Shown: positions 3,179 to 42,200 of the stretch, in pieces | Position numbering within the stretch: the first letter of the stretch is position 1 | Layout of the letters: the number at the start of each line of letters is the position of its first letter | Source: Nicotiana tabacum | Taxonomy: Eukaryota > Streptophyta > Magnoliopsida > Solanales > Solanaceae | Direction of reading: 5' to 3' | NCBI RefSeq assembly: GCF_000715075.1 | Contig: NC_134097.1 | Span: forward strand, 123,254,997-123,318,996 | DNA length: 64,000 nt | Program-made: the position numbers and the translations under genes | Notes under the pieces: generated by a model | The model's database searches: none | What the model saw: the letters and a program-made list of their open reading frames with translations, nothing else | Told to the model about the DNA's origin: nothing

Positions 3179-3180
3179 AA

Positions 3181-7267: not shown

Positions 7268-7320
7268 ATTTGACACAAATATTATTTAATAGCTGACGAC
7301 ACAAATCAAGATTATTTCCT

Positions 7321-12551: not shown

Positions 12552-12942
12552 CGTGGATCAAACGCCACAAATTTCTCTACAAGTTTCAGAGTTCAAGCAA
12601 CCAAGTTCAAGTTCAAGTTCAAGAACAAATCAAATATTCAAGCTTAAGAACGAAGAATAATTCAATTATTCAAGATCAAGAACGAAGTCAAATCAAATAC
12701 AAGGCGTTCAAGACCAAGGCTACTTGTTCGTGATACAATTCGTGGAAACAATCAAAGTGTTCGCTATGGTTAAATCAAATTCAAATTCAAGATCAAGCTC
12801 AAAGGCCCTTAAATTTATACTAGAAAAGTAGAATCAGAGGAATCATAGAGATTGTACACTCAAATATTCGAAATAAAATACTACGATTGTTGCGATATTT
12901 TCGGTCTTGATTTTATTTTCTCGACGCAATTTATTGTCTACA
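12552..12942 (+). repeat. Left (5') LTR of the Tat element, 5'-truncated
   Basis: Matches the last ~386 bp of the right LTR (from about 41815), with roughly 15 single-base differences and an extra gttcaa unit. The first ~515 bp of the LTR, including the TGTAG end, are missing, so the left duplication is also gone. Confidence 0.9.
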
Positions 12943-12947
12943 AATTC

Positions 12948-18900: not shown

Positions 18901-20484
18901 TGTCTTCTACTCATTTAAATTTTATTAGTTTAAGTTTCAGTTTTGTTTTAATTGGTTAGTATAGTATTATACTTGACATGATAAACTGTTAACTAATTAA
19001 CCTTCTGGAGTAGTAAATTCCACGATAATCTTATATGTTTTGAGGACTAGTGATGACATTTACTGTTTGAATTGATAGGGAACATTGCAGAAAATTGGCC
19101 ATTAATTAAATCTTGTGATATTGTTAGCTAAGTAAAGAATAGTACGGAAATACCCAGAAATTACATTACTAGCTTATTTTGTCAAATATCTAATTTTGTT
19201 TAAGGCTAGATGATGTCGTCTTATTAAATCAATTGGTAGATTAATTCTCTTTATTAATAACAAATGGCGTAGTTAAATCAACTCATTTCTTTTAATGTAT
19301 GAAATAATGTCGATGATTTTTTTTACAAAATATAGAGTTAGTGTTTGCAAATATTCGCATAGGCAGAGAATAAGAATTGGTTTATTTATCTCAAACTCAA
19401 TCTTCGTAATCAAAAATCAACTAAATAATTATAACTTTGGACTAAAACAAATACATGAGAAGGACATGGGATTTATAAACAAATCGTGGCATTTTATGTA
19501 AAAGATATATAGAAGAAGAGTTCGCCTTAAATGAAACAATGAAGATTCTGCAGAAACTATTAATTTGTTTATCATTTTAAGTTCTTTCCCAATTTTATAC
19601 ACCATTCGATTTATGGACATCCAAATGTTGTATCCACAAAAAATGTTAGTTTTAGATACATATTGTCCGTTTTCTTCTTCACGCCATTAATTCTTTAAAA
19701 TTTGAGATATATGATTCATATGTGTAAAATAAGGCTCGCGGTCAACACGTAATAACAATTTGTAGAGAACCTTATCAAGAATATTTTTGTGATTAGGGAT
19801 ACGTTCGCGTAACCTGATTATATTTCTAAAAGCAATTCGGATTATGCGTTCGCGCAACTTCGATCGAATATTTAATAAAAGGGATTCCTCGGAGAATATC
19901 ATTATTAATTTCATAAAACCCCGAGATGTGAGGTTCACTACTTAATTATACAAAAAGGGCGAATGTTTTTGATTTTATTTAAGCACAATTTCGAAAATAA
20001 TTGTTTTAATAAATATATTATCTATATTATCGTGTACACGTGCGCGTGACACAACTCCGCATGTTTTTAAAAAAATATAATTTATAACACGAATATACGT
20101 ACGCGTGATTCGATTCAAAGAAGGGTCTTTAAATATAAATAGAAGCGGTAACAATAAAATCATGCAATAAAAATGTATTTTACAAATCAAAATAATCAAG
20201 CCGAATATAACAGTTGAGCGACCGTGCTAGAACCACGGAACTCGGGAATGCCTAACACCTTCTCCCGGGTTAACAGAATTCCTTATCCGGATTTCTGGTG
20301 CGCAGACTGTTAAATAGACAGAGTCATATTCTCCTCGATTCAGGGATTAAAACCGGTGACTTGGGACGCCATAAAATTCCCAGGTGGCGACTCTGAAACG
20401 AACAAACAAATCCCGTTTCGACTGTCCTTTAATTGGAGAAAACTCCCTTGCACCCTCGCGGGGGTGGAAAAAGGAGGTGCGACA
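15942..20484 (+). repeat. 5' LTR (4.54 kb) of the non-coding element
   Basis: AT-rich ends with a GC- and CT-rich block at about 16390-17200. That block contains a short ATG frame (16435) repeated in the other LTR. Gypsy-like ends TG...CA. A 10-11-bp unit near 16022 (ttttgtgatat) occurs once more here than in the 3' LTR. Confidence 0.95.
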
Positions 20485-20488
20485 GCTC

Positions 20489-20507
20489 TGGCGACTCTGC
20501 TGGGGAC
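20489..20507 (+). other. Primer-binding site of the LARD-like element
   Basis: tggcgactctgctggggac, four bases after the 5' LTR end. Same position and TGG start as in gypsy elements. Confidence 0.85.
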
Positions 20508-21520
20508 TAACACCCAGAACCACTGGTTCAGGGTTTAAGAATTCGAGCTTAAAATAACTGTTATAGTTGGCTTTATTTATTATCTGATTTTTTTTATATA
20601 TGCCCAATGTGCTAAATGACACTTTTAACGCTTTAATATTATTTGAATTATGAATATATACAACTGCTACGAAACCCCCTTCTTTCTGAGTCTTCTAAAT
20701 TTATGGTGCACACGTGCGCGTGGCCCACCTTTCTGTTAAAGTCATACCAAATAAGACGAAGTTGGGACAAGTAACTAGGCCGGGTAGACTTTCGTGCTCC
20801 CGGTACGTTGCCCCCGCTTCGGCTCAAACTGTCTGTTTGGGTAAGCCAGGGCTAGATCAATATGCCTCAGGTTTTTTCACTTAGAATAACTCAGCTTCAT
20901 GCCGGATCCCTAGTAGGAGCGATTGTTTGCATCACGTGCATTTGACTTTGGAGACTCAACACAGGGGTTGGGTCTGTCTAGGACAGGTGTACCAAAAAAA
21001 ATGACCATCCTGATGCATCTTACTTGCTGCTACTTGCGCATTTATTTGATCCGGATTTGTGTGTTGACTGACTTTTGAATATCATGAATAATATTTTAAA
21101 ATTGAAAAAAAAGAAATAGCGGTTAGGGAATTGACTGTTTATTTTTGAAAAAAAAAATAATGCCCAAATACTGTCAAAACTCTGCCGAAATTTTGAGAAA
21201 ATGAAAAAAAATGTTTTATTAGTTTGTTTTATTAAAACCAAAGAAAAAATAGAAAGAAAAAAAAATCGTTGTTCTGTCTTATTTTTCAAAAAAATAATAA
21301 AATATATATATATAAAGATATATAAAAAATATATAAAAAGGAAAATAGTTTGTCTTCCCCTGAAAATGACAATGAAAAAGAGTCTTACTTTTAAAATAGT
21401 TTTTTTTTATTCGTTTCTGAAAAATTCAAAATAAGAAAATGAATATAGTCGTGCTTTGAAAGTGGTTTTGTTATTTTTTGCTGAAAAAAAAATCCTGTTT
21501 TAAAATAGTTCGGTTAATGG

Positions 21521-21590
21521 CCCGAACTACGCGGGTTTGATTCTCACCGGATGTGAGATACGTAGGCAACCCTCATCGGGTCCAACCCCC
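21521..21590 (+). ncRNA. Structured motif copy 1
   Basis: P1: CTACG 21527-21531 pairs with CGTAG 21561-21565. P2: TCTCAC 21542-21547 with GTGAGA 21553-21558. P3: ACCC 21569-21572 with GGGT 21578-21581. Pseudoknot-like pairing: GGGTT 21533-21537 with AACCC 21584-21588. The conserved words GAACTACG, TGATTC and ATACGTAGGCA are present. Function unknown. Confidence 0.7.
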
Positions 21591-22353
21591 ATTTTTGCTA
21601 AAATAGCCAAAAACCAATAAATAAATAAAAAACATGTCAAAATTTTAATTTTTTTCATAAATAAGTCGGGCAGTGTCCAGCCTCCACTTTTTGCTAAAAC
21701 AAAATAACCAAAAAAAAATATGTCAAATTTTAGTTTTGTCATAAAGAAGTCGGGTGACGTTGTTTTATCAAGACATAGCCGAATGTTCCCGAAAGGGACG
21801 CTGGAAGGCTGACTTTGCATAAACAGCCACCTTTGGGTCATTTTTTAAAATTTGGTTCAGTTGACCCACACAGCCTTAAAAAATCTTCGTCCCCGAGGCG
21901 CTGAAGGGCCGTGTTGCACCACCTGGTTTTTATTTTAATTTGAAAAAAAAAACAAAGAGCCAACGGTCAGGTGAATTTTTTTTTAGTAAAAAATAAGCCG
22001 AGCTAGCTTCGACAGTGTCTTAAACCGTTCTTGCCGAAATAGCCTTAGAGTATCTTTCAGTTGTCGAAAGGCTATTTTCGTAAAAGAATGGACAAGTTTT
22101 TAAAGTGTCATAAAATAATCCTCTCCGGCCTCAAAATTTGGAAGGGGCCACATTTGCAAAAATAGCCGTTTGATTGCATTTGTCAAACGGGGAAAGGAAG
22201 CTGGCCGTTTGTTTTTGAGTTTGTAAATCTTTTGATTAAAATATGTGGGTTGTTTGATTTTCGAGTTTGTAGGTCATCTTCAAACCATTGAAACCCAGTT
22301 TATTTTAATATGAAAATTGAAAAAAAATGATTAGTATTGTTCATCTTTTATTG

Positions 22354-22426
22354 GTCCGAACTACGCAAGGTCTGATTCATGCGGGGTCATGATACGTAGG
22401 CAATCTCCATAAGATTCGACCACAAC
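22354..22426 (+). ncRNA. Structured motif copy 2
   Basis: P1: CTACG 22361-22365 with CGTAG 22395-22399. P2: TCATG 22377-22381 with CATGA 22388-22392. P3: AATCT 22402-22406 with AGATT 22412-22416. Pseudoknot: GGTC 22369-22372 with GACC 22418-22421. The pairing sequences differ from copy 1 but remain complementary. Confidence 0.7.
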
Positions 22427-23628
22427 AAAAAAAAATGAAAAAAAAAAATGAAAAAGAAAAAATGGAAAAAAAATCGAAAAAAAAGGAAAGAAAATGAAAA
22501 AAAAAAGATGTTGTTAATAATGGGGACCAACTGAGTCCATTCTAACCTGTTTTGTTTTGAATCGCAAAGAAAGAAGGTGGTTGGTTTGTGGTAAGCCGGA
22601 AATACAAGACCCAGAAGCACACTTTGCCGGGATCAGGCATGATAACAGAAGCACTCGAATCCTATTGGGACTTGTTGACTAAGGTTGATGATATCGAAGT
22701 TGGAAATGGGCTGGACAATACTGATGCAAAGCTCAGTGGCTAAAGATGTCAATTTCGATAAAGTGTGAGGACGCTCCGTTCCTTGGTTAGCAAAAGAGAA
22801 GCTTGTGGTGGCTTATTTTGTTGTCATTTCTGTTGTCCGGATTATTCTTAGGGTTGTAATCCGAATATTGTCTTGTGTCAAACCTTCTTATCTTTCCAGT
22901 TTGTCATATCAGTTTGTTTAAGTTTTGTCGAGGTTGTGTTAGGATTTTATTCTGGTTGTTTTGTTTGTTTTATTATTCAAACCATTTCACCGGTAGTCTA
23001 ATACAAAAGCCGGTCTTTTATTGTTTCCAGTCATCTTTTGTTTTTCTTTTGTTCAATGCCGATTCTAGGGACATGACATGCGCACACAGTTTGGGCCTAG
23101 TCTTAAAAGTTAATTATAAAACTCCGGAAAGGTGATCAGACCATTTAAAGGAAATAAGAACGGTGTGAGATTATTTGAAGCCCGAGTCAGGTGGAATTAG
23201 GGCAAGTAAAACACAAAGAAAACCGTTAAATGCAAGATTCGCCGAATTGGCATGAGGGTCGTTCATGAGAGTGAGAGTGTCGCCCAGCAGTGCTTTAGAA
23301 ATGACAAATGAAAAAGCAAGTGTTTAACATAATTGTCAAGTCCAGCACCATCGGAAGAGACTATAAATCTATGTTCAATTGTGTTGTTTGCACTTGGCAT
23401 GTTTTGAAGACTGGAATGACGAAGGCATTTTATTGTGCTACCTAAACACTTTATCCTTCGTTACCCCTTTTGAGCCTTATTTATTTTCTTTCATACCCCT
23501 CGTTCGGAATCAATAGCAACGACTAGGAAATACGAGCCTGGAAGGTAAAGAAAAATCAAAAAAAAAAACGAAAAAGAAAAAGAAAAATCAAAAAAAAAAA
23601 AAGAAAGTCAAATGAAAAAAGAGTAATT

Positions 23629-23690
23629 GGGAACTACGTTTGACCTGATTCCTCAAAGAGGATACGTAGGCGCTTCACGGCTCGGTCATA
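23629..23690 (+). ncRNA. Structured motif copy 3
   Basis: P1: CTACG 23634-23638 with CGTAG 23665-23669. P2: TCCTC 23650-23654 with GAGGA 23658-23662. Pseudoknot: GACC 23642-23645 with GGTC 23684-23687. The P3 hairpin is not convincing in this copy. Confidence 0.65.
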
Positions 23691-25440
23691 GGGTGCATAT
23701 TGTGCATAATGTGCATGGTATGCATGGTGTAATAAATAAATAAAAAAAAATTTTAAATAAATAATCCCCAAGCAAGAAACTGGGGCAAGGGTTGCGCTCG
23801 TGGTAAGCAAAATTGGTTCCGAATGTTGTAATTTTTAACCCCAAATTTATTTTATTTTTGAGCCTTTAATACCCTTTCTTTCTAGCCTATCCAAAAACCC
23901 ACATTACGGTCCAAAGAAAGACCTTCTGACCAGTCTGCAAAAGATGCCAAATCAGACAAATGAGAGTCTTACCGGTGAACATAACACTCTGTTCCACAAC
24001 AGAAAGGACTCTAATCTCCAGCAGAGAGAGTCATACCGGCAACACTCCAAATCCCCAGCGGGAAAGTGATACAAATGAGAGAGTCTTATCGGTGAAAATC
24101 TTCACGGACACCATAAGGCGATGAAAGCTGAGAGAAAAACCAAAATGAGAGAGGCTTGATAGTGAAAACCCTTCGGGCACTACAAGTCGAATAAGATTGG
24201 GAATCAGATGGGGAATCGCCAATTGAAGGTCTTGAAAGACGATTGACGACAGAGGATGGGCCACATGTGCATGTCATGACCATTAGAGTCGGTATTTGCG
24301 TTTGATAGGTTTTTATTTATAGTTTCTTTTGTTAAAGAGTCATCTTTTTCCGTTGTCTTTTATTCTGTTCCCTTTTATCTTTTCCTTTCATAGAAATTTC
24401 CCCAGTAGAGTCTGTTTGGTCAGAACCAGTGGGAAATGACTTCAAAATAGGCCATCAGCTTTCCAAGATAAAATCTGACTAATATATCCAAGTGATATAG
24501 TCAGGAAGGAACAAGCGCGAGGCTAATGTCAAGAAAGATATCCCCAGTAAAAGGGAATTGACAAAAGGATCGACGAGTGTCAAGAGGGATATCCTTGCCG
24601 AAATCAGAGGTTATTAAAACCTCAAGGCCAAGGCCCGTGGACAAAACAAGGAGAGCAATAAGCATGACTTGGAAAATTCATGCGAGACTAAAAGGTCGGG
24701 AAAATGCAAGTCTCCGAGCCATGCCACGAAAGAAGAGGGATATCCCCAGCAGAAAAGGATTATCCCCAGCAAATAATATCATCCCTTGTGGAATGCAGAG
24801 CAAGGAAGGAAAAGGGAAAAGTCGTCCCAGTGGAGTATCACAACCAACTACCACGCTTTAAGCTAACAAATTTTGTTTTGAAACAGGTAAAAGAAATGGC
24901 ATTGATGACAGAAATGCATGCCATAAGGGAGACTGTAAAACTGGGGCAGAAAATTTTCCTTTCATTTGGAAAATTTTATGGAAGTCAGGTACCCATTTGA
25001 GGAAGAATAAAAAATAACACCAGTCTCAAGGGAAGTGGTCTTTGAACCAGTGTTGCCCCATTATAATAAGTTTCCAATGGAGGAAATTGATCCCCAGCAG
25101 ACAGAACAAAGGGATGACATTTGTGCTCAGAAAAACAAAAGCCATTATCATCCCTAGGAGCTTCCAGAAGAATGAAGCATCGATTTGAAGGGATAAAATT
25201 CCCCAGCAACGTTATCCTCAATGACGTTATCCCAAGAAGATAACACTTTTATCCCCAGCAGTGTTGAGAGAAAATAAATTCTGAAAAAAAAGAGAGAAAA
25301 AAAAATTTGAATTTGAAGGAGGGGAAGAAAGAAAACTACCGCAGTAGTATTATCCCCAGCAAGCAAGAACAAAGCAGCGCGAAGGAAGGAGAAAAGAAAA
25401 GAAGGAATTACGAAGGTAAGTTTCTCAAATCATTGATCTT

Positions 25441-26508
25441 TACATTTTTTTCCTAGGATAAAAGTCCTAGTCTGATGAATTTCCCTCCCGATACAATCTT
25501 GGTCCGATGAAATTTTCTCCCAAGATAAGATATCAAATCTTAGTCGGATGAATCTTTCTCCTAAGATCACAACAAAATGGACCTAGTCTGACGATTTATC
25601 TCCTAGAGTCAAAATCTTGATCTGATGAAATTGTTCTCCCAAGATAAAATCTTAGTCGGATGAATCTTTCTCCTAAGATCACAACAAAATGGACCTAGTC
25701 TGACGATTTATCTCCTAGAGTCAAAATCTTGGTCTGATGAAATTGTTCTCCCAAGATAAAATCTTAGTCGGATGAATCTTTCTCCTAAGATCACAACAAA
25801 TGGACCTAGTCTGACGATTTATCTCCTAGAGTCAAAATCTTGGTCTGATGAAATTGTTCTCCCAAGATAAAATCTTAGTCGGATGAATCTTTCTCCTAAG
25901 ATCACAACAAAATGGACCTAGTCTGACGATTTATCTCCTAGAGTCAAAATCTTGGTCTGATGAAATTGTTCTCCCAAGATAAAATCTTAGTCGGATGAAT
26001 CTTTCTCCTAAGATCACAACAAAATGGACCTAGTCTGACGATTTATCTCCTAGAGTCAAAATCTTGGTCTGATGAAATTGTTCTCCCAAGATAAAATCTT
26101 AGTCGGATGAATCTTTCTCCTAAGATCACAACAAATGGACCTAGTCTGACGATTTATCTCCTAGAGTCAAAATCTTGGTCTGATGAAATTGTTCTCCCAA
26201 GATAAAATCTTAGTCGGATGAATCTTTCTCCTAAGATCACAACAAAATGGACCTAGTCTGACGATTTATCTCCTAGAGTCAAAATCTTGGTCTGATGAAA
26301 TTGTTCTCCCAAGATAAAATCTTAATCGGATGAATCTTTCTCCTAAGATCACAACAAAATGGACCTAGTCTGACGATTTATCTCCTAGAGTCAAAATCTT
26401 GGTCTGATGAAATTTTTCTCCCAAGATAAGATATCAAATCTTAGTCCGATGAATCTTTCTCCTAAGATAGGATATCAAATCCTAGTCTGATGAATTTTCT
26501 CCTAGGAT
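25441..26508 (+). repeat. 112-bp tandem array with three-part internal structure
   Basis: The phrase tagtcggatgaatc recurs at 25541, 25653, 25765, 25876, 25988, 26100 and 26211, with variants at 26323 and 26442, giving 111-112-bp spacing (119 for the last step). Each unit is built from three related sub-units of about 34, 42 and 36 bp. These share the pattern aatctt(a/g)gtc(g/t)gatgaa(t/a)...tctcc(t/c)a(a/g)ga. Copies are nearly identical in the middle and diverge at both edges. Confidence 0.9.
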
Positions 26509-26539
26509 AATTTGAAAAGAATTGAATTGAAAAAAAGAG

Positions 26540-27095
26540 GTTGAAATCAGGAGCCCCCCTAAAGAATAGAATGGCAATTATTTTCAAAGTTGTTATTGAA
26601 GTCAGGAGCCCGCCTGAAGAGAGGAAAGGCGTTTTTAAAAAAATATTGTTGAAATCTTGCCAACCTAAAGAAAGGAATGTCGATGTATTGGTTGAAGTCA
26701 GGAGCCTGCCTGAAGAGAGGAATGACGATTATTTTCAAAGTTGTTGTTGAAGTCAGGAGCCCGCCTGAAGAGAGGAATGACGTTTATTTCTAAAGTTGTT
26801 GTTGATATTGGGAGCCCGCCCAGATAACAGAGGCATACATTTCAGTCTTTAATTTTCAAGTGTTGAAATTGGGAGCCCGCCCATAGAACAGAGGCATACA
26901 TTCAGTCTTTATATTTCAAGCATTGAAGCTGGGAGCCCGCCCAAATAACATAGGCATACCTTTCAGTCTTTACATTTCAAGCATTGAAGTTGGGAGCCCG
27001 CCCAGATAACAGAGGCATACATTTCAAGTCTTTAATTTTCGAGTATTGAAGTTGGGAGCCCGCCCATATAACAGAGGCATACATTTCAAGATCAA
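26540..27095 (+). repeat. Second tandem array, GGGAGCCCGCC-type units
   Basis: Two related series of roughly 55-65-bp units. 26540-26800 carries gtcaggagcccgcctgaagagaggaatg. 26800-27090 carries gggagcccgcccagataacagaggcataca. GGGAGCCCGCCC is the shared core. Confidence 0.85.
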
Positions 27096-27584
27096 GTCAG
27101 AGGACAATAAAACAGAGGGTTACAATAGGAATCCCCAACAGGAAACAATAAAATTCCCCGGCACCGGGAAACAGAAGGTTGCAACAAAGAGGTCACAGTA
27201 CAAACTCAAGTACATGTGTCAAAAGAAGAAAAGCACCGGAAAAAAATGCAAGCAGACAAGGAAGCAAGGCAACAAAAACAAATTGTACTCTAGCCTAGCT
27301 TCTTGTTTTCTTTTAAGCATGGTGTAACAAGGAGATCGGTAAGCAATAGTAATAGCATGCAACAACAATGACAATGCAGTCCCACGGTAGTCCCAGCTAC
27401 CAAAATTTCCCGAACTACATTGACCTGATTCCTGTTTAGCCCAGGATATGTAGGAAACCTTTGAAGCAAAGGTTCGGTCAAATCTTTTTCAAAAAATGCT
27501 TCAACGGAGTACTCGGATGGGCAAAAATCGCTCGCTTTATCTTTGCACGAAAACCCTTCGTGTCTCCGGGCAAAGAGGGGCAGC
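27096..27584 (+). other. 3' end of LARD interior with polypurine tract
   Basis: No gene. It contains motif copy 4 and ends in the purine-rich gggcaaagaggggcagc (27568-27584) abutting the 3' LTR, the expected plus-strand primer. Confidence 0.8.
27410..27480 (+). ncRNA. Structured motif copy 4
   Basis: P1: CTACA 27415-27419 with TGTAG 27449-27453, a compensatory change at the last pair relative to the other copies. P2: TCCTG 27430-27434 with CAGGA 27442-27446. P3: AACCTTTG 27456-27463 with CAAAGGTT 27467-27474. Pseudoknot: GACC 27422-27425 with GGTC 27476-27479. It lies about 100 nt before the purine tract. Confidence 0.75.
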
Positions 27585-30500
27585 TGTAAGCACGTGATTT
27601 TTGCCCAATATGAGAATTACTCCCAAAAATCCAAAAATAAAATGATTTTTCTTTGGTGTGCAATTTTGTGATATTTTGAATAATTATTTGTATTTTTCTG
27701 TGCGTGTTTATTTGCTAAATTAATAAAAAATACAAAAATATGTCGCCTTTTGCATGTAGGATTTAATTCTAAAATTGTTAGTAATTAAATTTGTTTTACA
27801 AAAATTAAAAATTACAAAAATAGGCATCGTTTGCATTTTTAGCATTTAATGTCCAAATATACAATTTTATGCTTAATTATTACTTAATTGTGCGTTAATT
27901 GTTATTGGGAGTTAATTTGCGCTTTTATAACTTAATTTAATTCTTAATAATAGTTTAAGTATTTTTATAAATTAGTTTTAGAAGAAATAAAAGAAGAAAA
28001 GAGAGCGAAAATATAAAGAAAGTCGGAATTAGGCCTCTTCTTCAATTTCAAGCCACAGGCCCAAAAATGGCCCAATCTTCCCTACGACCCAGTCCATTTC
28101 GAACTGGGTCGACCCAGTCCATTTCGAACTGGGTCGACCCAGTCCATAACCCAAAAGACCCAAACCCATTTTGTCTTACATTTTACAAAAAAAAAACAAA
28201 ACAAAACAAAATGAAGAAAACCCTAAAAATTGCAAAATCATCCGCCACCCTCCTATCTTCTTCTTCTTCCTCAAGTTCAAAGTTGCCCTCCCATGTCCGC
28301 CCGTCGACCACCCTTCGTCCAACAGTTGACGCAGCAACGAAGCTGCTCTCCGACCACCCATGACTACATCGTCTTCATCTCCTTCTTCTTCGTCCGTATT
28401 CCCTAGCCCTATCCGCCATTGACGAGGCTCGTCGAGCTCAAGCTTGAGCTCGACGTCCATGGCTGACCATGCTGCTTCTTTTCCTCCTTCCGAGCACGTC
28501 GAGCTGCTGCTGTGGTTGCTTAGATCTTTTCCGTCCAAACACCACCTCCGAACGACCCCAGCCACGCCGGAACAACACAAAACGAACCAAGATGCCATGG
28601 CTGTCCGCTCACGCATCTGCTACTGCTGCTAAGCAGCTGCTAGTGCTTCCCGTCGTCCTCCTCGATGGACTGCTGCTTCCATGGTTGTCGTTGATGCTGC
28701 TATCACTGCTTGGACGCCGCTGCTAGTTCGTCGCCGCTGTTGGGTCGTCGCCGCTGCTGCTTTGTCGCGGTAGTGGCTTCAGCTGCCCCCGACGCTGCCG
28801 CCTCACCTTCGTCCTCTTCACTTCGGCCTCGCGTACACAGATGAGTTTTGGTCGATGTCGTTCATCGTTGGTTAGTCATTCGTTGTTTCAATCCGGTTAG
28901 TAGTTTTTGAATTTTATTTTGTCCGTATTTTGCTTTGATATTTTTCGAATCTAAAATCGGCGAATGTTTGTTTTATTCATGTCTATGGTTAGATATTTGA
29001 TTTTTGGTTTTGTTCATGTTCATGTTGTTTGTTAAATTAATTTTCAGATTTCAAAATAGAAGTTTAATTAATTGTTTTCATATTCATTTCATGTTTGTAT
29101 TATTGTTTAAATGAATATTTGTTAGTTTGATGTTTGTTAGATTCAAATTGAAATTTAATTAACTATTTCTTCAATTTGTTTCATGTGTTTATGTATTGTT
29201 AGAAATTGTTAATATTGTTAAGTTCAAGTTTAAGTTCATAATTGTTTCTTCGTCGATCTTGTTATTTGTTTAAAGAATTTAGTTGTGTTAAAGGAATATA
29301 TTGTTTTAATCGTTTAATCCGTCATGTTTGTTGTGTTAAAATAGATTCATTCATGTTCATACTTTGTTTGGATGATCTTGAATCCGAATTTTGTATAGTT
29401 TGATTTCTTGTTTACCATTTATGATTATTGCTTGAATTGTTCTCATAATCTTGTTTAAAGTTTAATATAAGAATTGTTTGTTGTAATGTTGTTAGAGTTG
29501 ATTTTAAGTTCAATATGATTGAAGTTAGAAATCTAAATATACTTGTTTGTTGTTGTTGTTAAATCCGAAAATAGGTTTGTTGTTGCTAAAAATATTGTTC
29601 AATCAAAATTTAGTTGTTCTTGGTTGTTCAATTTGTGTTCATATGATTTGTGGTTGAAATCATGTTCATGTGATTTGTTATTGAAATGTTGAAGAAATCA
29701 TGTTCATGAAATTTGTTGTTTGAACATTGTTAGAAATTAACCATATTGCCTATATTTTGGTTAAGTTTGATTAATTGATGTGTTATAGCTGATGGGTAGT
29801 TTGGTAATTTGTAGTACGTTCAGGGGTAGTTTGGTAATTTTCAGTAAGGTCGGAGGGGTAGTTTAGGAATTGTACATTTTGTAATTGTTTATATGAAGCA
29901 TGGGGGACAAAATAAAATGGGGTGGTTTGTGATATGGTTATTTAATATAAAGGGGGGACAAGATTTAATTTAAAGGGGGAATCTTGCATTATTTTATGTT
30001 AGGCATGGGGGACAAAATGAAATGGGGTGGTGTGATATGTTTATTTAATGTAATGGGGATGAGTGGGAAGATAATGGGTTGGGTAGAGAAAAAGTATTGA
30101 TTTTAATTAATTGAAAGGTTTATGGGATGGGTTATAAGATGAAGTCTTGAACACAAGACAAGAACAGAAATAGAGAGAGATACGAAAAAAATACACACAC
30201 AGATAGAGAGAAAAAACGGACAGAGAATAGAAGAGAGAAAAATTCCGAAAAATATTTAAGCTTTCAAAATAAAAATAAAACTAAAAAAAATCTACTGCTC
30301 TTTTTCTTTGTTTGAAATTAGTATTAATGATTGTTGTTTCATTTAAAGCTTAAAGCTTTTATTTTTGGGATTACTACTCCACCGGTCTGTTACTGGGTTG
30401 TTACTGTTGCTGGGCAGTTGTTGCTATTGTACTGTTATTATTGCTGCTGATTCTCATCATCATTTTCTTTTGCTTCCAATATCAGGTACATATCTGTAAA

Positions 30501-32140
30501 TTCATGTCATGAAAAGCTTCAACATGGCAAGTAAATGAAGTTTGGAATTATAAGGATGTCTTCTACTCATTTAAATTTTATTAGTTTAAGTTTCAGTTTT
30601 GTTTTAATTGGTTAGTATAGTATTATACTTGACATGATAAACTGTTAACTAATTAACCTTCTGGAGTAGTAAATTCCACGATAATCTTATATGTTTTGAG
30701 GACTAGTGATGACATTTACTGTTTGAATTGATAGGGAACATTGCAGAAAATTGGCCATTAATTAAATCTTGTGATATTGTTAGCTAAGTAAAGAATAGTA
30801 CGGAAATACCCAGAAATTACATTACTAGCTTATTTTGTCAAATATCCAATTTTGTTTAAGGCTAGATGATGTCGTCTTATTAAATCAATTGGTAGATTAA
30901 TTCTCTTTATTAATAACAAATGGCGTAGTTAAATCAACTCATTTCTTTTAATGTATGAAATAATGTCGATGATTTTTTTTACAAAATATAGAGTTAGTGT
31001 TTGCAAATATTCGCATAGGCAGAGAATAAGAATTGGTTTATTTATCTCAAACTCAATCTTCGTAATCAAAAATCAACTAAATAATTATAACTTTGGACTA
31101 AAACAAATACATGAGAAGGACATGGGATTTATAAACAAATCGTGGCATTTTATGTAAAAGATATATAGAAGAAGAGTTCGCCTTAAATGAAACAATGAAG
31201 ATTCTGCAGAAACTATTAATTTGTTTATCATTTTAAGTTCTTTCCCAATTTTATACACCATTCGATTTATGGACATCCAAATGTTGTATCCACAAAAAAT
31301 GTTAGTTTTAGATACATATTGTCTGTTTTCTTCTTCACGCCATTAATTCTTTAAAATTTGAGATATATGATTCATATGTGTAAAATAAGGCTCGCGGTCA
31401 ACACGTAATAACAATTTGTAGAGAACCTTATCAAGAATATTTTTGTGATTAGGGATACGTTCGTGTAACCTGATTATATTTCTAAGAGCAATTCGGATTA
31501 TGCGTTCGCGCAACTTCGATCGAATATTTAATAAAAGGGATTCCTCGGAGAATATCATTATTAATTTCATAAAACCCCGAGATGTGAGGTTCACTACTTA
31601 ATTATACAAAAAGGGCGAATGTTTTTTATTTTATTTAAGCACAATTTCGAAAATAATTGTTTTAATAAATATATTATCTATATTATCGTGTACACGTGCG
31701 CGTGACACAACTCCGCATGTTTTTAAAAAAATATAATTTATAACACGAATATACGTACGCGTGATTCGATTCAAAGAAGGGTCTTTAAATATAAATAGAA
31801 GCGGTAACAATAAAATCATGCAATAAAAATGTATTTTACAAATCAAAATAATCAAGCCGAATATAACAGTTGAGCAACCGTGCTAGAACCACGGAACTCA
31901 GGAATGCCTAACACCTTCTCCCGGGTTAACAGAATTCCTTATCCGGATTTCTGGTGCGCAAACTGTTAAATAGACAGAGTCATATTCTCCTCGATTCAGG
32001 GATTAAAACGGGTGACTTGGGACGCCTTAAAATTCCCAGGTGGCGACTCTGAAACAAACAAACAAATCCCGTTTCGACTGTCCTTTAATTGGAAAAAACT
32101 CCCTTGCACCCTCGCGGGGGCGGAAAAAGGAGGTGCGACA
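27585..32140 (+). repeat. 3' LTR (4.56 kb) of the non-coding element
   Basis: Near-identical to 15942-20484. Differences noticed are scattered substitutions, loss of one ttttgtgatat unit, and an extra copy of a roughly 26-bp gggtcgacccagtccatttcg unit near 28110. The TSD catac follows at 32141. Confidence 0.95.
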
Positions 32141-32249
32141 CATACTAAAGGAGTTAACTCTTCCGGTCAAACAAATTGAGGCAGTAAAGTCGTCCTCAAT
32201 GCCGCTTGCAGGGTTTGTGGCCCAAAATCGTTGGCAGAATGTGGCACTC
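32141..32249 (+). pseudogene. Tat element protease-RT linker, fragment between insertions
   Basis: About 36 codons continue the frame cut at 15941 (the stretch ends PLAGFVAQNRWQNVAL). It is then interrupted by the solo LTR at 32250 and resumes at 33837. Assignment rests on position and on the continuing frame between two exact target duplications. Confidence 0.7.
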
Positions 32250-33836
32250 TGATAACTGTGATTTCTACATGTTTTATACCCATTCTTACCTAAGCTTTGT
32301 GCATTAACTGCCATAAATTAGTCCCAAAATACTTACAAGTTGTGCTTGATTGCAGGTTTGAGCGACAAGATGACAAATACTAAAGATCGGCTCAAAAAGG
32401 AGTGAAATCTGCCAAGTGTCAAAAGACAACAAAAGGGGGGAACAAAATGACCGGTGCGGTCCGCACTGTTTTGTCACGCGACCGCACAGGAGAGTTCAGA
32501 GGCTGGGCATTTTCAAGCTCAACCTGTGCGGTCCGCACTGTTTTGCCACGCGGCCGCACAGGAAAGTTCAGAGGCCATGCCATTTTTAAGTCAAGCTGCG
32601 CGGTCCGCTCTCTTTTTCACGCGGTCCGCGCCCCTTTTCATGTGGTCCGCGCCTAAGAGTGTCAGAGACTCAATCATTCAAGGCAAAAGCCCACGCGGCC
32701 GCACACCTAATCAGTGCGGTCCGCGTGGATGAAGTTCACGCGGCCGCGCGTCACTTTTGTGCGGTCCACGTCCCTAGTGCCAGAAGCAAGATATGAAGAC
32801 CCAAAACCCTCCGCGGCCACGCGTCATTTGTGCGCGGTCCGCGCCAGACCCTCAGGGGTATTTTTGTCCGATTTTTCCTGTATAGTATAAATAGAACATT
32901 TTACTTTTTAGGAGCAGTTTTTTAGATCTGTTTTTGAGAGCATAGAGCAGCTGAACTTGGGATTTCATGATTTTAGCCTATTTTGGGCAATCTCTTCTAG
33001 TATTAACGTGGATTTGAGTAGATTAACATTGTAGTTAATTGTTATGTCAATTTCATCTATTATTTCTTCAATTTCTATTCCTATTATGGCTAGCTGAACC
33101 CATTAGCTAGGGTTGTGGCTCAACCCTAGTGTGGGTAATTAATGGGTGTGATTGTTTAGTGCATGAATGATGTTGGGTATTTGTTATTTGAATTAATCTT
33201 ATGTTTTCATTAAGATTTGGTGGTTGCAAACACTAAATCTAGCTTAGTGAGTCTTGACTCTTCTTGAGAAAGAGAGTCTATGACCCCATAATTAATTCTA
33301 ACAAGGAATTGGGATGGGCCCATGAGAATGGTAGTCCCAATTAACGGGTTAAATCTAGAGAGAGTAATTACCCAACTTGAACCATAAGTTACTTGGGCAA
33401 ATTGGCCTACCCAATTGGTCTCGAGAGAGTCAATTGGGCAAAATCACTCTCTCTACCGAGAGGTGTGAGAGTGAGTGCAAAAGTGCAATGGTTATAGCAT
33501 AAGTCCCATAGTCATCATTCTTGCATTAGGAATCTCTACCCGTTAGTTGACCACCTAGGTACATGCCACAGCCCTAGTGCCTTTCTCTATATTGCATAAA
33601 ACTTAGAATCATAATTTTAGCATAACTTAGCTTTACAATTGTAGTTGATAAATTGTAGCTATTAATCAAAAGAAAACCAAAAATGTTAGAAGATCAATTA
33701 GGAGCTAAAACATAGTCCTAGACTATACAAACACGCAACTCCAAATTGAAGTTCCCTGTGGAAAATTGACCCCGATACCGCTATTGGGTAAAAGTATTAG
33801 CGCCCATTCTTCCTCAGGTCGAGTCCGCTGCGATCA
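32250..33836 (+). mobile_element. 1,587-bp solo LTR, Athila-like
   Basis: Begins TGATAACTG and ends GCTGCGATCA. The flanks are cactc (32245-32249 and 33837-33841). TGAT...ATCA ends, a length near 1.6 kb and the ttccctgtggaaaattgacccc...-type sequence before the end are what I associate with Athila-group gypsy LTRs; that assignment is tentative. A TATA-like tatagtataaata lies near 32880. It interrupts the Tat coding region. Confidence 0.85.
32450..32850. repeat. Cluster of GCGGTCCGC/GCGGCCGC palindromic words
   Basis: Inside the solo LTR, GTGCGGTCCGC, CGCGGCCGC and close variants recur more than ten times in 400 bp, giving an unusually CpG-rich island in otherwise AT-rich DNA. Each word is itself near-palindromic, and neighbours are inverted relative to each other. 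Confidence 0.85.
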
Positions 33837-35545
33837 CACTCCCTACAAAGCGAATAGATGAAGGTTTTGATCCTAATGCTTACAGGTTATTTGCAAAAGT
33901 TAGATACAATCCTAATGAGCCGTCAAAGTTAGGGAAGCTACCATCAGAAGCTGCAACGAGACAACCAGGTGAAGGTTTGGGATACAAGCAACCGTCACCA
34001 GTGCGCATCTCAATAAGAAGGGTGAGTAGCAATTACATCACTGTAGAAGACGAATCTGCCGCTTCTAACAGGCCTTCTGTGTTTGACCGACTTTGGAAAA
34101 TCAACTGTGAGAACTTTCGTATTTGAGAGATTGGGTCCATTAAAAAAGGGGAACAAGTTCTAGAGAAATTTTCAAAGCATAAGAACACCCGCTCCACCCA
34201 AGATCCAGAAGATCTCTAATGATTTCCAAAGTTTGGTTCCTTCAAGAATGAGGCGACAAACAAAACTCGTGGTTTCATGTGAAGAAGTACTAAAGGTAAA
34301 GCCATATATTGTGGTCTACACTAAGGAACATGACGAAGATGAAGAAAGTGTAGGTTCTTCGCATCATGTCACTGTACAAGGCGAGAATGGTGTTCCGTCT
34401 TCGATGGAGGATAATGCAGAATTGGAGCATGTTTCACCGTGTTATCACATATCCTTCGACGATGGGGACCCTCAAGGAGATGAAGATGCGAAAGATGCTC
34501 TGCTTGAACTTGAAGAAGGAGTGAAGACGACAGTTGATGCCTTAAAAGAAGTCAACCTTGGGACCGATGAAGAGTGAAGACCCACCTACCTAAGTGATTT
34601 ACTAGAAACTGATGAAGAGAGCACTTATATTGAGTTACTCAAGGAGTTCAGGGACGTCTTCGCTTGGAATTACAAAGAGATGCCTGGCTTGGACCCGAAA
34701 GTAGCAGTCCATTACCTTGCAGTCAAAAATGGTACTCGCCTTGTTAAACAAGCTCAAAGGCGTTTTAGGCCGGACCTGGTTCCCTTGATTGAAACAGAAG
34801 TTAACAAACTCATAGAAGCTGGCTTTATTCGTGAAGTCAAATACCCAACATGGGTTTCAAGTATTGTCCATATAAGGAAGAAAAATGGCCAAATTCGAGT
34901 GTGCGTTGACTTTAGGGATCTTAACAATGCATGTCCGAAAGATGAGTTCCCCCTTCCCATTCTAGAACTGATGATCGATGCTACTACTGGGTACAAGGAA
35001 ATGTCATTTATGGATGGTTCATCGGGCTATAACCAAATACGCATGGCACCAAAAGGTGAAGAGCTTACTGCATTCTGTACCCCAAAGGGTATTTATTGCT
35101 ACAAGGTAATGCCTTTTGGCTTGAAGAACGCTGGTGCTACTTACCAAAGGGCTATGCAGAATATTTTCAACGATCTTCTCCATAAGAATGTCGAATTCTA
35201 TGTTGATGACTTGGTGGTAAAATCAAGAGAGAAGGGCGACCACTTGAAGGACTTGAGGATGGTATTTGAATTGCTCCGGAGATACCAACTTAGGATGAAT
35301 CCATTGAAATGTGCCTTTGGAGTTACTTCTAGAAAGTTCCTTGGTTTCATTGTCCGACATCGAGGGATCAAAATTGATCAAGCCAAAGTAGATGCCATTT
35401 TGAAAATGCCTGAGCCTCGGGATATCTATGAATTGAAAAGTCTGCAAGGAAAGTTAGCGTACCTTAGGAGATTCATCTCGAACCTAGCTGGGAGGTGTCA
35501 ACCATTCAGTCGCCTTATGAAGAAAGGTGTCCCTTTCAATAGGAC
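33837..35545 (+). pseudogene. Tat element linker and reverse transcriptase
   Basis: The frame resumes after the solo LTR (33842 onward) with linker sequence containing several lesions, then an acidic segment at 34233-34577 ending in TGA. In the same frame follows RT: QRRFRPDLVPLIETEV, IRKKNGQIRVCVDFRDLN, SFMDGSSGYNQIRMAP (catalytic Asp), FGLKNAGATYQR, and the YVDD box (EFYVDDLVVKS) near 35190-35220. The palm and thumb regions follow. A frameshift near 35540 separates it from RNase H. The RT copies genomic RNA into DNA; all catalytic Asp residues are still present although the gene is not translatable as one unit. Confidence 0.92.
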
Positions 35546-36496
35546 CAAGCATGCGGTAATGCCTTTGAGAGCATTAAATCCTACTTGATGAAGCCTCCAG
35601 TTTTAGCAGCCCCTATACCTGGAAAGCCATTGATACTATACATTGCGGCACAAGAAAGGTCTGTTGGAGCACTGTTGGCCCAAGAAAATAGTGAAAGGAA
35701 AGAAAACTCTCTTTACTACTTGAGCAGGATGATGACACCGAACAAGCTGAATTATTCGCCAATTGAAAAGTTGTGTTTGGCACTAGTCTTCTCATTTCAA
35801 AAGTTGAAGCACTACTTTCAAGCTCATGTTGTTCGTCTTGTTTCTAAGGCAAATCCCATCAAGTTCGTGATGTCAAAACATGTCCTTAGTGATCGACTAG
35901 CAAGGTGGTACCTCCAGTTTCAACAATTTGAAATCGTGTACATCCCTCAGAAGGCTATAAAAGGACAAACGTTAGTGGACTTTTTGGCAGATCACCCTAT
36001 ACCTGATGATTGGGAGCTAACTGACGAACTACCTGATGAGGACGCCATGGTCATCGAAGTTCAGCCTCTATGGAAGATATACTTTGATGGTGTTGCACAT
36101 CGTGGAGGAGCTGGTGCTGGTGTAGTATTTGTCACTTCTCAAGGTGAAGTTATGCCCTACTCTTTTACGGTGACGCAACTCTGCTCTAACAACATTGCTG
36201 AGTATCAAGCACTAATACTTGGGCTCGAAATGCCTGTCGAAATGAAGCGGTTGCAATTACAAGTCTTTGGTGACTCTCAGTTAGTGGTCAATCAGCTTTT
36301 AGGTAGTTACGAGGTCAAGAAGCCTGAACTATGCCCATATCATGATTATGCTAAAAAGTTAATGGGGTGGCTCGGTGATGTGACTATTCAGCATGTGCCA
36401 AGGAAAGAAAATAAGAAGGTGGATGCTTTAGCTGCCCTAGTTTCATCTTTAACCCTGCTTGATCAAGCGCAAGTTTTGTCTACCAAAAATGGGTAG
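35546..36496 (+). pseudogene. Tat RNase H plus archaeal-type second RNase H
   Basis: The first part (LILYIAAQERSVGALLAQ ... LSYLSRM-type) is the RNase H attached to RT. From about 36065 a second RNase H fold follows, with acidic positions in YFDGVAH, AEYQAL, FGDSQLV and KVDALAAL. Dual RNase H, with the second of archaeal type, is characteristic of the Tat lineage. The frame ends with a TAG at about 36494-36496 and shifts into the integrase frame. Confidence 0.88.
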
Positions 36497-37821
36497 TACC
36501 GCCGTCAAGTGATGCTGAAGGTGAAGAAAATGAACTCAAGCATCTTGTTGCTATTTCTGAAGTCGAGAGAGAAGAATGGCGACAACCCATTATCGACTAC
36601 TTGTGCTATGGGATACTTCCAGAAAATCCGCGGAGAAGAACTGAAATCTGTCGTCGTGCACCTCGCTTCCTTTACTACAAAGATACCCTATACAGAAGAT
36701 CATTTGAGGGAGTACTCTTGCGATGCTTAGGGGAAGATGAAGCACTCCAAGCTTTGCAAGAAGCGCATTCTGGGGTATGTGGGTCACACCAGTCTAGACC
36801 AAACCTTCACGTTCATATAAAAAGGATGAGATATTATTGGCCAACGACGGTAAAAGATTGCTTGGACTATGCTCGAAGATGCAAGGCTTGTAAATTCCAT
36901 GCAAATTTTATTCACCAACCTCCTAAAGTGTTGCACCCGACTGTGGCATCCTGGCCGTTTGACGCTTGGGGATTGGATGTTGTTGGACCACTGCCAAAGT
37001 CCTCTGGTGGGCACCTATACATCCTGGCTGCAACAGACTACTTCTCAAAATGTGTTGAAGTTGTTGCTCTCAAGGAAGTAAAGAAGGAAAATGTTGCAAA
37101 TTTCATCCGAGTAAACATTATTTATCACTTTGGCATTCCTCGCTACATAATAACGGATAATGGAAAGTCATTCGATAATAGGTTGATGAACAAGATTTGT
37201 GATCTCTTTGGCTTCAAGCAACATAACTCTTCGATGTACAATGCTGCCGCCAATGGTCTAGCTGAGGCATTCAACAAAACTCTATGCAACTTGCTAAAAA
37301 CAATCGTCTCCAAATCCAAACAAGATTTGAATGACCGGATGGAAGAAGCTCTATGGGCATATAGGACAACTCACCGCATGCCAACACAAGCGACTCCTTA
37401 TTTACTGGTTTATGGAGTCGAAGTCGTCTTGCCACTTGAGCGTCAAATACCTTCATTACGACTGGATATTCAAGAAGGGATCGCTAATGAAGAAAATGCT
37501 CGACTTCGATTAGCAGAGTTGGAGGCTCTTGATGAGAAGAGGTTGGGAGCTCGACAGAGTCTTGAATGTTATCAAGCTCGATTGTCTCGCGCCTTCAATA
37601 AAAGAGTTCGCCCGAGATCCTTTCAAATAGGAGATTAAGTCCTTGCCATACGAAGACCCATAATTACTTTCCATAAACCTGTAGGGAAGTTCACTTCAAA
37701 ATGGGATGGACCATATGTTATACAAGAAGCTTACTCAAGTGGGGCTTACAAGCTGGTTGATGCAGATGGCATGAGAATCGGCCCTATCAATGGCAAGTTT
37801 TTGAAGAAGTATTATCCTTGA
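36497..37821 (+). pseudogene. Tat/Ogre integrase
   Basis: Contains the zinc-binding HHCC module (EAHSGVCGSH ... CKAC near 36760-36890), the DDE core (GLDVVGPLP, ITDNGKSF, GLAEAFNKTL) and a C-terminal GKFTSKWDGPYVIQEAY domain ending in KKYYP and the stop at 37819-37821. A TAA at 37636-37638, where a Gln or similar codon is expected, breaks the C-terminal domain. Integrase inserts the cDNA copy. Confidence 0.92.
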
Positions 37822-37993
37822 AGTTACAACGCTCCTTGACGCATGAACCTAAACTGCATGTTGCTACACTCTTGGCCCGCAAGAGTATAAACTGTGTACA
37901 ACCCACAAAAAAAAGTCCGCTAGGTTAAAAATCTTGAAAGAGGCAGCCTAGGCAAAAGTTAGGACGTAAAAAAAGGGGAAAAATCTACCCATT

Positions 37994-38066
37994 CTGAACT
38001 ACGGTATGACTTGATCCTCTTCACTGAGGTACGTAGGCAGCTTAGAGTTTCATTCTAAGTTCAGTC
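37994..38066 (+). ncRNA. Structured motif copy 5 (in the Tat element)
   Basis: P1: CTACG 37999-38003 with CGTAG 38032-38036. P2: CCTC 38016-38019 with GAGG 38026-38029. P3: CTTAGA 38041-38046 with TCTAAG 38054-38059. Pseudoknot: GACT 38008-38011 with AGTC 38063-38066, a compensatory variant of GACC/GGTC in copies 3 and 4. It lies about 170 nt after the integrase stop. Confidence 0.75.
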
Positions 38067-39260: not shown

Positions 39261-39339
39261 TTACAAGCGCGTAAAGCTGAAAATTATGCGACTAAGATAA
39301 AAGTCGGATAATGTAAAGCAAAGAGAAGCTGAAATATTT

Positions 39340-41298: not shown

Positions 41299-42200
41299 TG
41301 TAGGCATATAAATTTTAAATCCATAAAGAATTTGGATTATATTTTAAAATTCAAGATATATTGATCCAAATAAATATTATGGGCTAATATAATTGAATTA
41401 CTTATATAAGTCCAATATATATGAATTAAATAAATATGTCTTAATCTATTGGGTTAGCCCACTTAATTGGGCTACAAATGATGAGCCCACTTCATTAGGC
41501 CCAAGAGATCATCTTCCTAGAGGCCCAGTTTGGTGCCACGCGTGAAATGACGTGGCACGCCAAGTCAAGCGGAAGAGCCAATAGGATCATGCCCCATATC
41601 AAAATGACAAGGCATGCCAAGTCACATTAAAAGGCCAATGAATCACGCCACGTGTGCAAGTGACATGTTCTGGCCAATCAAATGCGGCCATGTCACACTT
41701 CAATTTGATTGGTCGGAAAGAGTTTGTTCTTATCACAACTCCTCCCTTCCACAACTAGGGGTCTTCATAACCCAAAAAAGGGACCAGAAGTTATAACAAG
41801 AAGCAAGAGAGAGCTCGTGGATCAAACGCCACAAATTTATCTACAAGTTTCAGAGTTCAAGCAACCAAGTTCAAGTTCAAGAACAAATCAAGTATTCAAG
41901 CTCAAGAACGAAGAACAATTCAAGTATTCAAGATCAAGAACGAAGTCAAATCAAATACAAGGCGTTCAAGATCAAGGCTACTTATTCGTGATACAATTCG
42001 TGGCAACAATCAAAGTGTTCGTGACGGTTAAATGAAATTCAAATTCAAGATCAAGCTCAAAGGCCCTTAAATTTTTACTAGAAAAGTAGAATCAGAGGAA
42101 TCATAGAGATTGTACACTCAAATATTCGAAATTAAATACTACGATTGTTGCGATATTTTCGGTCTTGATTTTATTTTCTCGACGCAATTTATTGTCTACA
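41299..42200 (+). repeat. Right (3') LTR of the Tat element, complete
   Basis: 902 bp, TGTAGGCATA...ATTGTCTACA with a 5-bp inverted TGTAG/CTACA terminus, preceded by the purine tract. The last 386 bp match 12552-12942. Confidence 0.93.

What the first reader, a model, noticed from the sequence alone, without database searches (positions are those of the whole stretch)
21521..38066. A five-copy covarying structured element shared by two different retrotransposons
A 60-73-nt motif occurs at 21521, 22354, 23629 and 27410 (LARD-like element) and at 37994 (Tat/Ogre element that hosts it). Conserved words are GAACTAC, TGAT(T/C)C and TA(C/T)GTAGG. Between them the sequence varies, yet helices are kept. 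P1 is CTACG/CGTAG, but CTACA/TGTAG in copy 4. P2 is TCTCAC/GTGAGA, TCATG/CATGA, TCCTC/GAGGA, TCCTG/CAGGA and CCTC/GAGG. P3 is ACCC/GGGT, AATCT/AGATT, AACCTTTG/CAAAGGTT and CTTAGA/TCTAAG (weak in copy 3). A crossing pair is GGGTT/AACCC, GGTC/GACC, GACC/GGTC twice, and GACT/AGTC. Such compensatory change means selection on a fold, probably in RNA, with a pseudoknot. The sharing fits a packaging or priming signal recognised by Tat/Ogre proteins, a self-cleaving RNA, or a translation or export element. I know of no named class with this layout.
Basis: partly seen in the sequence, partly recalled or inferred. Interest (0 to 1): 0.9.

Follow-up and report, generated by a model that had tools for sequence, protein, structure and literature searches.

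The report
Pseudoknotted RNA signal in plant retrotransposons
A 58-72-base motif, predicted to fold as RNA into a four-helix pseudoknot, sits at fixed places around the genes of Tat-type retrotransposons in a 4-billion-base genome that is probably a tobacco relative's, matches there tens of thousands of times, keeps its base pairs through paired changes, and is likely a handle by which the elements' own proteins recognise their RNA.

Summary
All five copies are real; a covariance model run without filters finds exactly these five in the window, all on the + strand. Genome-wide a half-motif pattern occurs 67,770 times against 5 for the reversed pattern. Across 86 distinct copies the proposed fold (P1, two hairpins, a crossing helix) is 92.5% paired, with 249 cells changed on both sides; a tree-aware null gives 60 +/- 22 and never reaches it in 1000 runs. 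Single pairs are weaker: 1 of 19 passes alone, 7 of 19 when only the 19 are tested. Identity is 71-95% inside the motif, 26-52% in the flanks.

Copies sit at fixed places (leader, just after integrase, about 0.1 kb before the 3' LTR), on the sense strand. Leader and 3' copies are separate lineages, and a non-coding LARD keeps four. Rfam gives only weak sub-threshold hits, and no paper found describes it. The helix order is that of HDV-like ribozymes, whose other tested features fail.

Best reading: a cis-acting recognition signal of Tat elements, most likely for Gag packaging (inferred, untested). Export or stability is the main rival; self-cleavage, translation and exonuclease blocking fit less well.

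The parts
21524..21588 (+). Motif copy 1 (leader type 1): GAA, P1 CTACG/CGTAG, crossing helix GGTT/AACC, hairpin TCTCAC/GTGAGA, hairpin ACCC/GGGT
   Evidence: 61.5 bits
22358..22422 (+). Motif copy 2 (leader type 2): P1 CTACG/CGTAG, crossing helix GGTC/GACC, hairpin TCATG/CATGA, hairpin AATCT/AGATT
   Evidence: 76.1 bits
23631..23688 (+). Motif copy 3 (post-integrase type, kept in the LARD without the genes): crossing helix GACC/GGTC, hairpin TCCTC/GAGGA, short hairpin GCT/GGC
   Evidence: 59.2 bits
27412..27480 (+). Motif copy 4 (pre-3'LTR type), 104 bases before the 3' LTR: P1 CTACA/TGTAG, crossing helix GACC/GGTC, hairpin TCCTG/CAGGA, hairpin AACCTTTG/CAAAGGTT
   Evidence: 65.2 bits
37996..38067 (+). 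Motif copy 5 in the host Tat element, 361 bases after the end of the integrase match: crossing helix GACT/AGTC, hairpin CCTC/GAGG, hairpin CTTAGA/TCTAAG
   Evidence: (50.8 bits)
15942..20484 (+). 5' LTR of the LARD (TGTAAGC...GCGACA); target duplication CATAC at 15937-15941
27585..32140 (+). 3' LTR of the LARD; target duplication CATAC at 32141-32145; purine-rich tract just before it
20485..27584 (+). LARD internal region: no open frame over 104 aa, holds copies 1-4
34680..37638 (+). Host Tat element pol in three frames: RT, RNase H, second RNase H (RVT_3), integrase
12552..12943 (+). Likely 5' LTR of the host Tat element (94.9% to 41816-42201)
41816..42201 (+). Likely 3' LTR of the host Tat element

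Best explanation
It is likely a cis-acting RNA signal of Tat-clade LTR retrotransposons: a 58-72-base motif on the elements' sense strand, predicted to fold into two hairpins clamped by a five-pair stem and a crossing helix, that would mark the genomic RNA for packaging by the elements' own Gag. Shown from sequence: the letters, the sense strand, the recurring positions (leader, after integrase, before the 3' LTR), the split between leader and 3' lineages, the paired changes, and retention in a LARD without long frames. Inferred: that the RNA folds this way in cells; that a Tat protein binds it; that several copies act together along one long RNA; that the LARD keeps them because it must be recognised in trans by proteins of autonomous Tat elements, as barley's parasitic BARE2 keeps packaging signals.
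For: Fold: 92.5% of 1606 cells paired, 249 both-side changes against 93.8 +/- 10.4 in shuffles, slid partners only 19-38% paired; tree-aware null 0 of 1000. Constraint: motif 71-95% identical against flanks 26-52% in 44 copies of four position classes. Position: 12 of 12 integrase ends counted (matches reaching residue 320 or more of 345) have a sense copy 215-461 bases downstream. Those loci were picked by motif hits; in 2 of the 12 (L013, L018) the locus had been picked by another copy. In each of the 20 ten-kb loci all model hits lie on one strand. Autonomous locus L017: copy at 671-735, gag-pro frame from 1028, pol frames to 8136, copy at 8414. Lineages: leader and 3' copies split with support 98/98, and four position labels need 3 changes on the tree, the least possible, shuffled mean 29.2. 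Trans argument: LARD without frames over 104 aa keeps four copies, and its LTR ends are about 80% like those beside an integrase-bearing locus (L018). Precedent: BARE2, which cannot make its own Gag, has conserved dimerisation and packaging signals (PMC3735527, passages).
Against: No binding, packaging or structure-probing data were available. The host Tat element of the window has a post-integrase copy but no leader copy, so a leader copy is not universal. Export or stability would give the same pattern. Taken singly, only 1 of 19 pairs is significant among all column pairs with the tree-aware null. P1 has little variation, and its covariation alone is not above the null (169 and 357 of 1000 runs as high). 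Four of five window copies do not fold clearly better than shuffles by nested free energy, which cannot score pseudoknots. The tree rests on 66 columns, with 6 of 48 inner branches well supported, and its position labels are partly circular. Only one genome was available, sampled near one end of one contig.
Confidence: 0.4

Rival explanations
1. A nuclear export or RNA-stability element, working like mammalian retrotransposon transport elements (RTE, MTE) or the plant ENE: the fold recruits host factors so that a very long RNA leaves the nucleus or survives.
For: Such elements exist, one with a pseudoknot (MTE), in mouse LTR retrotransposons (review PMC12786077, passages); a plant LTR retrotransposon has a 3' stability structure that promotes mobility (PMC12501189, abstract and one section). 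Several copies and retention in a LARD fit.
Against: Copies in the leader as well as the 3' part; no U-rich internal loop as in ENE; no direct data.
Confidence: 0.22
2. An exonuclease-blocking RNA (xrRNA): the pseudoknot closes a ring round the 5' end and stops XRN-type decay, leaving protected 3' fragments.
For: Compact pseudoknot with conserved unpaired letters, also directly before the 3' strand of the crossing helix, as reported for plant-virus xrRNA-D (PMC6299227, passages). Intergenic and 3' positions, several copies.
Against: Different layout: xrRNA-D is described as P1, P2 and a pseudoknot (some with a hairpin downstream of it); here a second hairpin lies inside the span of the crossing helix. 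A 5'-trimmed RNA lacks the LTR and primer-site parts needed for reverse transcription. No ribozyme or xrRNA family among the Rfam matches.
Confidence: 0.13
3. A self-cleaving ribozyme with the strand order of the HDV-like family.
For: Same order of helices (P1 5', crossing helix 5', hairpin, P1 3', hairpin, crossing helix 3'); a C just before the 3' strand of the crossing helix in 78 of 86 copies. HDV-like ribozymes occur in many mobile elements (PMC4035085, start of abstract in the listing).
Against: Cleavage in HDV-like ribozymes is at the first nucleotide of P1 (PMC4908430, passages); here P1 is preceded by GAA, conserved in 84-85 of 86 copies (the first 80 copies were collected with patterns that ask for GAACTA). 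The loop that should form the second pseudoknot varies freely. Two to four internal cuts would destroy the genomic RNA. No Rfam ribozyme match.
Confidence: 0.05
4. A translation element (IRES, shunt or 3' enhancer) for gag and pol.
For: It brackets the coding frames.
Against: The non-coding LARD keeps four copies; the pre-3'LTR copy of L018 lies 2.7 kb past the integrase end.
Confidence: 0.06
5. The fold acts in single-stranded DNA during reverse transcription, or the motif is a DNA-binding site, rather than RNA.
For: The two strands are not separated sharply: counted by cluster, G-U events 37 against A-C events 23 (p 0.09).
Against: Counted by cell, sense G-U pairs outnumber A-C mismatches 79 to 26 in 16 pairs (108 to 48 in all 19) and states fixed within clusters 11 to 2-4, as expected for sense RNA. 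A 22-base sense small RNA of the motif has been sequenced in tobacco.
Confidence: 0.05
6. No function: a short repeat spread by tandem copying and hitch-hiking.
For: It is multi-copy within elements.
Against: Flanks are hardly alignable while the motif stays 71-95% identical, leader and 3' copies keep separate lineages, and pairs are kept through change.
Confidence: 0.03

Closest known systems
HDV-like self-cleaving ribozymes (nested double pseudoknot; PMC4908430, passages)
   Same: Order of strands: P1, crossing helix, hairpin, P1, hairpin, crossing helix; the family is found in mobile elements
   Different: P1 of 5 pairs with conserved unpaired GAA before it; 4 conserved bases TGAT between crossing helix and hairpin; no second pseudoknot evident; internal positions; no Rfam ribozyme match
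Plant-virus xrRNA-D exonuclease-resistant RNAs (PMC6299227, passages)
   Same: Small pseudoknot with conserved unpaired core; intergenic and 3' noncoding positions
   Different: Here the crossing helix starts in the internal loop and spans a second hairpin; resistance not tested
ENE of Arabidopsis EVADE/Copia93 (PMC12501189, abstract and one section)
   Same: Structured cis RNA element of a plant LTR retrotransposon in the spacer before the 3' LTR
   Different: ENE is a U-rich internal loop that clamps poly(A); this is a pseudoknot without U tracts, also in the leader, in Tat elements
Packaging and dimerisation signals kept by barley BARE2 (PMC3735527, passages)
   Same: Cis RNA signal kept by an element that depends on another's Gag
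   Different: Another element type (BARE); its fold was not described in what was read
Mouse MusD transport element (MTE; PMC12786077, passage)
   Same: LTR-retrotransposon RNA element with a pseudoknot
   Different: Animal element acting through NXF1; repeated small copies are not mentioned in that passage

Membership tests
HDV-like ribozymes | Interleaved order P1-P2-P3-P1'-P4-P2' | tested here: met
   Alignment and pair counts
HDV-like ribozymes | Cleavage site at first nucleotide of P1, with no conserved sequence needed upstream (second half recalled) | tested here: not met
   GAA before P1 conserved in 84-85 of 86 copies (collection patterns favoured GAACTA)
HDV-like ribozymes | P1.1 pairing that makes the second pseudoknot | tested here: not met
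   Loop letters of the inner hairpin vary (columns 27-36)
HDV-like ribozymes | Match to the Rfam models | tested here: not met
   No match at gathering in 64 kb. At E up to 10 the copies give none or weak unrelated ones, all far below gathering (TCL6_2 E 8.1; Pox_AX E 0.97 and Afu_514; CRISPR-DR4 E 1 and snoZ105)
HDV-like ribozymes | Self-cleavage | not testable with these tools
   Needs transcripts
xrRNA (plant class D) | P1, P2 and a pseudoknot to sequence downstream, with no hairpin between | tested here: not met
   A second hairpin lies between P1' and the 3' pseudoknot strand
xrRNA (plant class D) | Stops Xrn1 at the base of P1 | not testable with these tools
   Needs enzyme assay
ENE / triple-helix elements | U-rich internal loop flanked by G-C pairs | tested here: not met
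   The internal loop is 2-4 bases, the crossing strand and TGAT on one side and TA on the other
Tat clade of Ty3/gypsy (host elements) | Second RNase H domain (aRH) in pol between RH and INT | tested here: met
   RVT_3 after RT_RNaseH and before integrase in the window and in L017; definition from PMC6317226 (passages)
LARD (large non-coding LTR element) | LTRs over about 4 kb and a non-coding internal region (definition recalled) | tested here: met
   LTRs 4.5 kb, no frame over 104 aa

The most novel reading that the evidence does not exclude
A new class of pseudoknotted RNA with HDV-like interleaving, present in tens of thousands of copies in one plant genome, that serves as the identity tag of Tat/Ogre retrotransposons: one fold read by their proteins at several places along each RNA, and the feature that lets protein-less LARDs be carried along.
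Probability: 0.38. Interest if true: 0.9.

Novelty: new variant of a known kind. Interest (0 to 1): 0.78.

Why it matters
How plant LTR retrotransposons, and above all protein-less LARDs, get their RNA recognised is largely open; a recent review says that export of their RNA has not been studied directly in plants (PMC12786077, passage). A compact, repeated, covarying fold in a very abundant element type of a giant genome gives a concrete target. It can be probed, mutated and used as bait, and a covariance model can find its relatives. It also warns that small-RNA studies may call pieces of it microRNAs.

Tried and rejected
Viral collection: the half-motif matches 3 IMG/VR contigs. By my reading of the frames L009 and L010 are phages; the 2.2-kb piece of L011 was not typed. 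None has the second half nearby: chance. Prokaryote genomes: a long, narrow pattern matches 0 stretches in the collection of 257 billion bases. Rfam: no match at gathering; sub-threshold matches unrelated. Literature: ten searches, seen as listings, showed no description; the library is open-licence PMC only. PMC12513839 (passages) has nothing on plant elements. Nested free energy: uninformative. A script comparing target energies of the two strands gave invalid values and is not used. Idea not supported: the crossing strands of leader copies (GGTC..GACC) and 3' copies (GACC..GGTC) are complementary to each other, which might join the two ends; L028 (GATC against GACT) does not keep it. A planned unbiased test (Tat integrase loci chosen without the motif) could not be run because the genome server did not answer.
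Full report
What is there. The five copies are at 21524-21588, 22358-22422, 23631-23688, 27412-27480 and 37996-38067, all +. Each reads GAA - P1 (CTACG or CTACA) - 2-4 bases - 4-base strand of the crossing helix - TGAT - hairpin P2 beginning TC and ending GA (CC and GG in copy 5) - TA - P1' (CGTAG or TGTAG) - GGCA or similar - hairpin P3 - usually TC or CC - second strand of the crossing helix. A covariance model built from 32 of 34 non-redundant copies (two representatives were left out by oversight; both are in the later alignment; some 3' ends were trimmed short) finds exactly these five in the window with filters off.

Setting. The first four lie in a LARD: LTRs 15942-20484 and 27585-32140, 98.3% identical, 5-bp duplication CATAC, no internal frame over 104 aa. 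The LARD sits inside a Tat element (likely LTRs 12552-12943 and 41816-42201) whose pol has RT, RNase H, a second RNase H and integrase, the mark of the Tat clade (PMC6317226, passages). Copy 5 is 361 bases after the integrase match.

Abundance. The window lies in a genome of 3,996,098,646 bases. GAACTACN{8,20}TGATYC occurs 65,785 times there, the reversed pattern 3,300. TGATTCN{6,30}TAYGTAGGCAR occurs 67,770 times, the reversed pattern 5. The first misses copies 1 and 4 of the window, the second copies 3, 4 and 5, so the motif is commoner than either count. A longer, narrower pattern has no match in the prokaryote collection.

Fold. I fetched 20 ten-kb and 40 201-base pieces, all from 0.27-4.04 Mb of contig C1 (222 Mb) and all picked by the first pattern. 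The model finds 96 copies in the 61 sources, window included, 86 distinct. On that alignment the 19 pairs are 92.5% standard over 1606 cells. There are 249 cells changed on both sides; shuffles give 93.8 +/- 10.4, none of 500 as high. Two other measures, pairs with any both-side change and further pair types, are not far from the shuffles (91 and 35 of 500 as high). Partners slid by 1-3 columns drop to 19-38%. On the 32 representatives: 94.3%, 90 cells against 34.0 +/- 4.6. The model held P1, P2 and P3 but not the crossing helix, so the latter's 90.2% pairing and four covarying pairs are not produced by the alignment.

Relatedness. A null that replays each column's substitutions on the tree gives for all helices 0.708 +/- 0.037 paired and 60 +/- 22 both-side changes, never reaching the observed values in 1000 runs. 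With a tree from the unpaired columns only: 0.676 +/- 0.042 and 88 +/- 27, again never. By helix, P2, P3 and the crossing helix are reached in at most 3 of 1000 runs on either measure. P1 is paired more than the null, but its covariation is not above it (169 and 357 of 1000). Pair by pair, with a G statistic corrected for background, proposed pairs take ranks 1, 3-8, 14, 15 and 18 of 1,847 column pairs. With the tree null only pair 24-39 reaches E<0.05 among all pairs. Scaled to the 19 proposed pairs (my scaling), seven do: one in P1, three in P2, one in P3, two in the crossing helix. The rest hardly vary or have too few independent changes (about 19-22 effective clusters).

Against a strong claim from energy: by nested free energy four of the five window copies fold not clearly better than shuffles (z -0.90 to 0.81; copy 4 z -2.00). 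That model cannot score pseudoknots.

Constraint and position. In 44 copies of four position classes, motif identity is 0.95, 0.84, 0.71 and 0.78 against 0.26-0.52 in 150-base flanks, gaps counted as differences. Twelve of twelve integrase ends counted have a sense copy 215-461 bases downstream. These loci were picked by motif hits; in L013 and L018 the picking copy was another one. In L017 a copy lies at 671-735, the gag-pro frame at 1028-4486, pol frames from 4685 to 8136, and the next copy at 8414. Pre-3'LTR copies end about 0.1 kb before the LTR in the two cases measured (window 104 bases; L018 about 90). In each of the 20 ten-kb loci the model hits share one strand. On a tree of the 56 copies from the window and ten-kb loci, leader and 3' copies split with support 98/98, and the four position labels need 3 changes, the minimum, against 29.2 in shuffles. 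Taken singly, leader type 2 and pre-3'LTR need one change, leader type 1 and post-integrase two. Labels come from integrase or LTR anchors where present and otherwise from order and kind, so this is partly circular, and only 6 of 48 inner branches are well supported. The picture is old duplication followed mostly by inheritance in place. The host Tat of the window has no leader copy.

RNA or DNA. Sense G-U cells outnumber A-C cells 79 to 26 in 16 pairs (108 to 48 in all 19), but only 37 to 23 when counted by cluster (p 0.09); states fixed in clusters are 11 to 2-4. A published tobacco root small RNA, novel-miR23 (22 nt, 0.8 in one of four libraries; PMC5036098, passages), is an exact sense match to four fetched pre-3'LTR-type copies (five loci, L003 and L013 being one copy). 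So at least a sense fragment exists as RNA in tobacco, and the genome is probably a Nicotiana (inference).

Function. A LARD encodes nothing of note, so what keeps four copies in it must act on its RNA or cDNA: transcription, export, stability, packaging or reverse transcription. Several internal cuts or 5' trimming would ruin the RNA as a template, which speaks against a ribozyme and against exonuclease blocking as the main role. I commit to recognition by the Tat machinery, most likely Gag packaging, at 0.4, with export or stability next. Nothing here tests binding.

Known kinds. Rfam has no match at gathering in the window; at E up to 10 the copies give none or weak unrelated ones far below gathering. 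The strand order equals that of HDV-like ribozymes, but the conserved GAA before P1 and the free inner loop fail their definition (PMC4908430, passages). xrRNA-D differs in layout (PMC6299227, passages), ENE in kind (PMC12501189, abstract and one section). Ten searches of the open library, seen as listings, showed no description. It works like a cis-acting retroelement RNA signal and is a new fold among those compared.

Noticed in passing
L003/L013 (one copy), L025, L059, L062 (pre-3'LTR-type copies): The published tobacco 'novel-miR23' (PMC5036098) is an exact sense 22-mer of this motif, so it is probably a fragment of Tat retrotransposon RNA rather than a microRNA.
   Followed up: partly
21524-38067 and fetched loci: Many leader copies have crossing strands GGTC..GACC and many 3' copies GACC..GGTC, so like-named strands of the two ends are complementary; L028 does not keep it.
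   Followed up: partly
L017:1028-4483: The gag-pro frame (1152 aa) has near its end a sub-threshold G-patch match (E 6e-4, 20.1 bits, cut-off 22).
   Followed up: no
25466-26505: Tandem array of about 112-base units in the LARD between copies 3 and 4; related units in L029.
   Followed up: no
38498-40498: Tandem repeats in the 3' non-coding part of the host Tat, between copy 5 and the likely 3' LTR.
   Followed up: no
2824-7830: A copia element on the minus strand (frames 3257-7276) between 355-base repeats 99.4% identical, apparently a young insertion; no motif copy in it.
   Followed up: no
L018:5235-9544: An LTR related to the LARD's follows an integrase-bearing end and is itself followed by LARD-like internal sequence, a possible tandem or recombinant element.
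   Followed up: no
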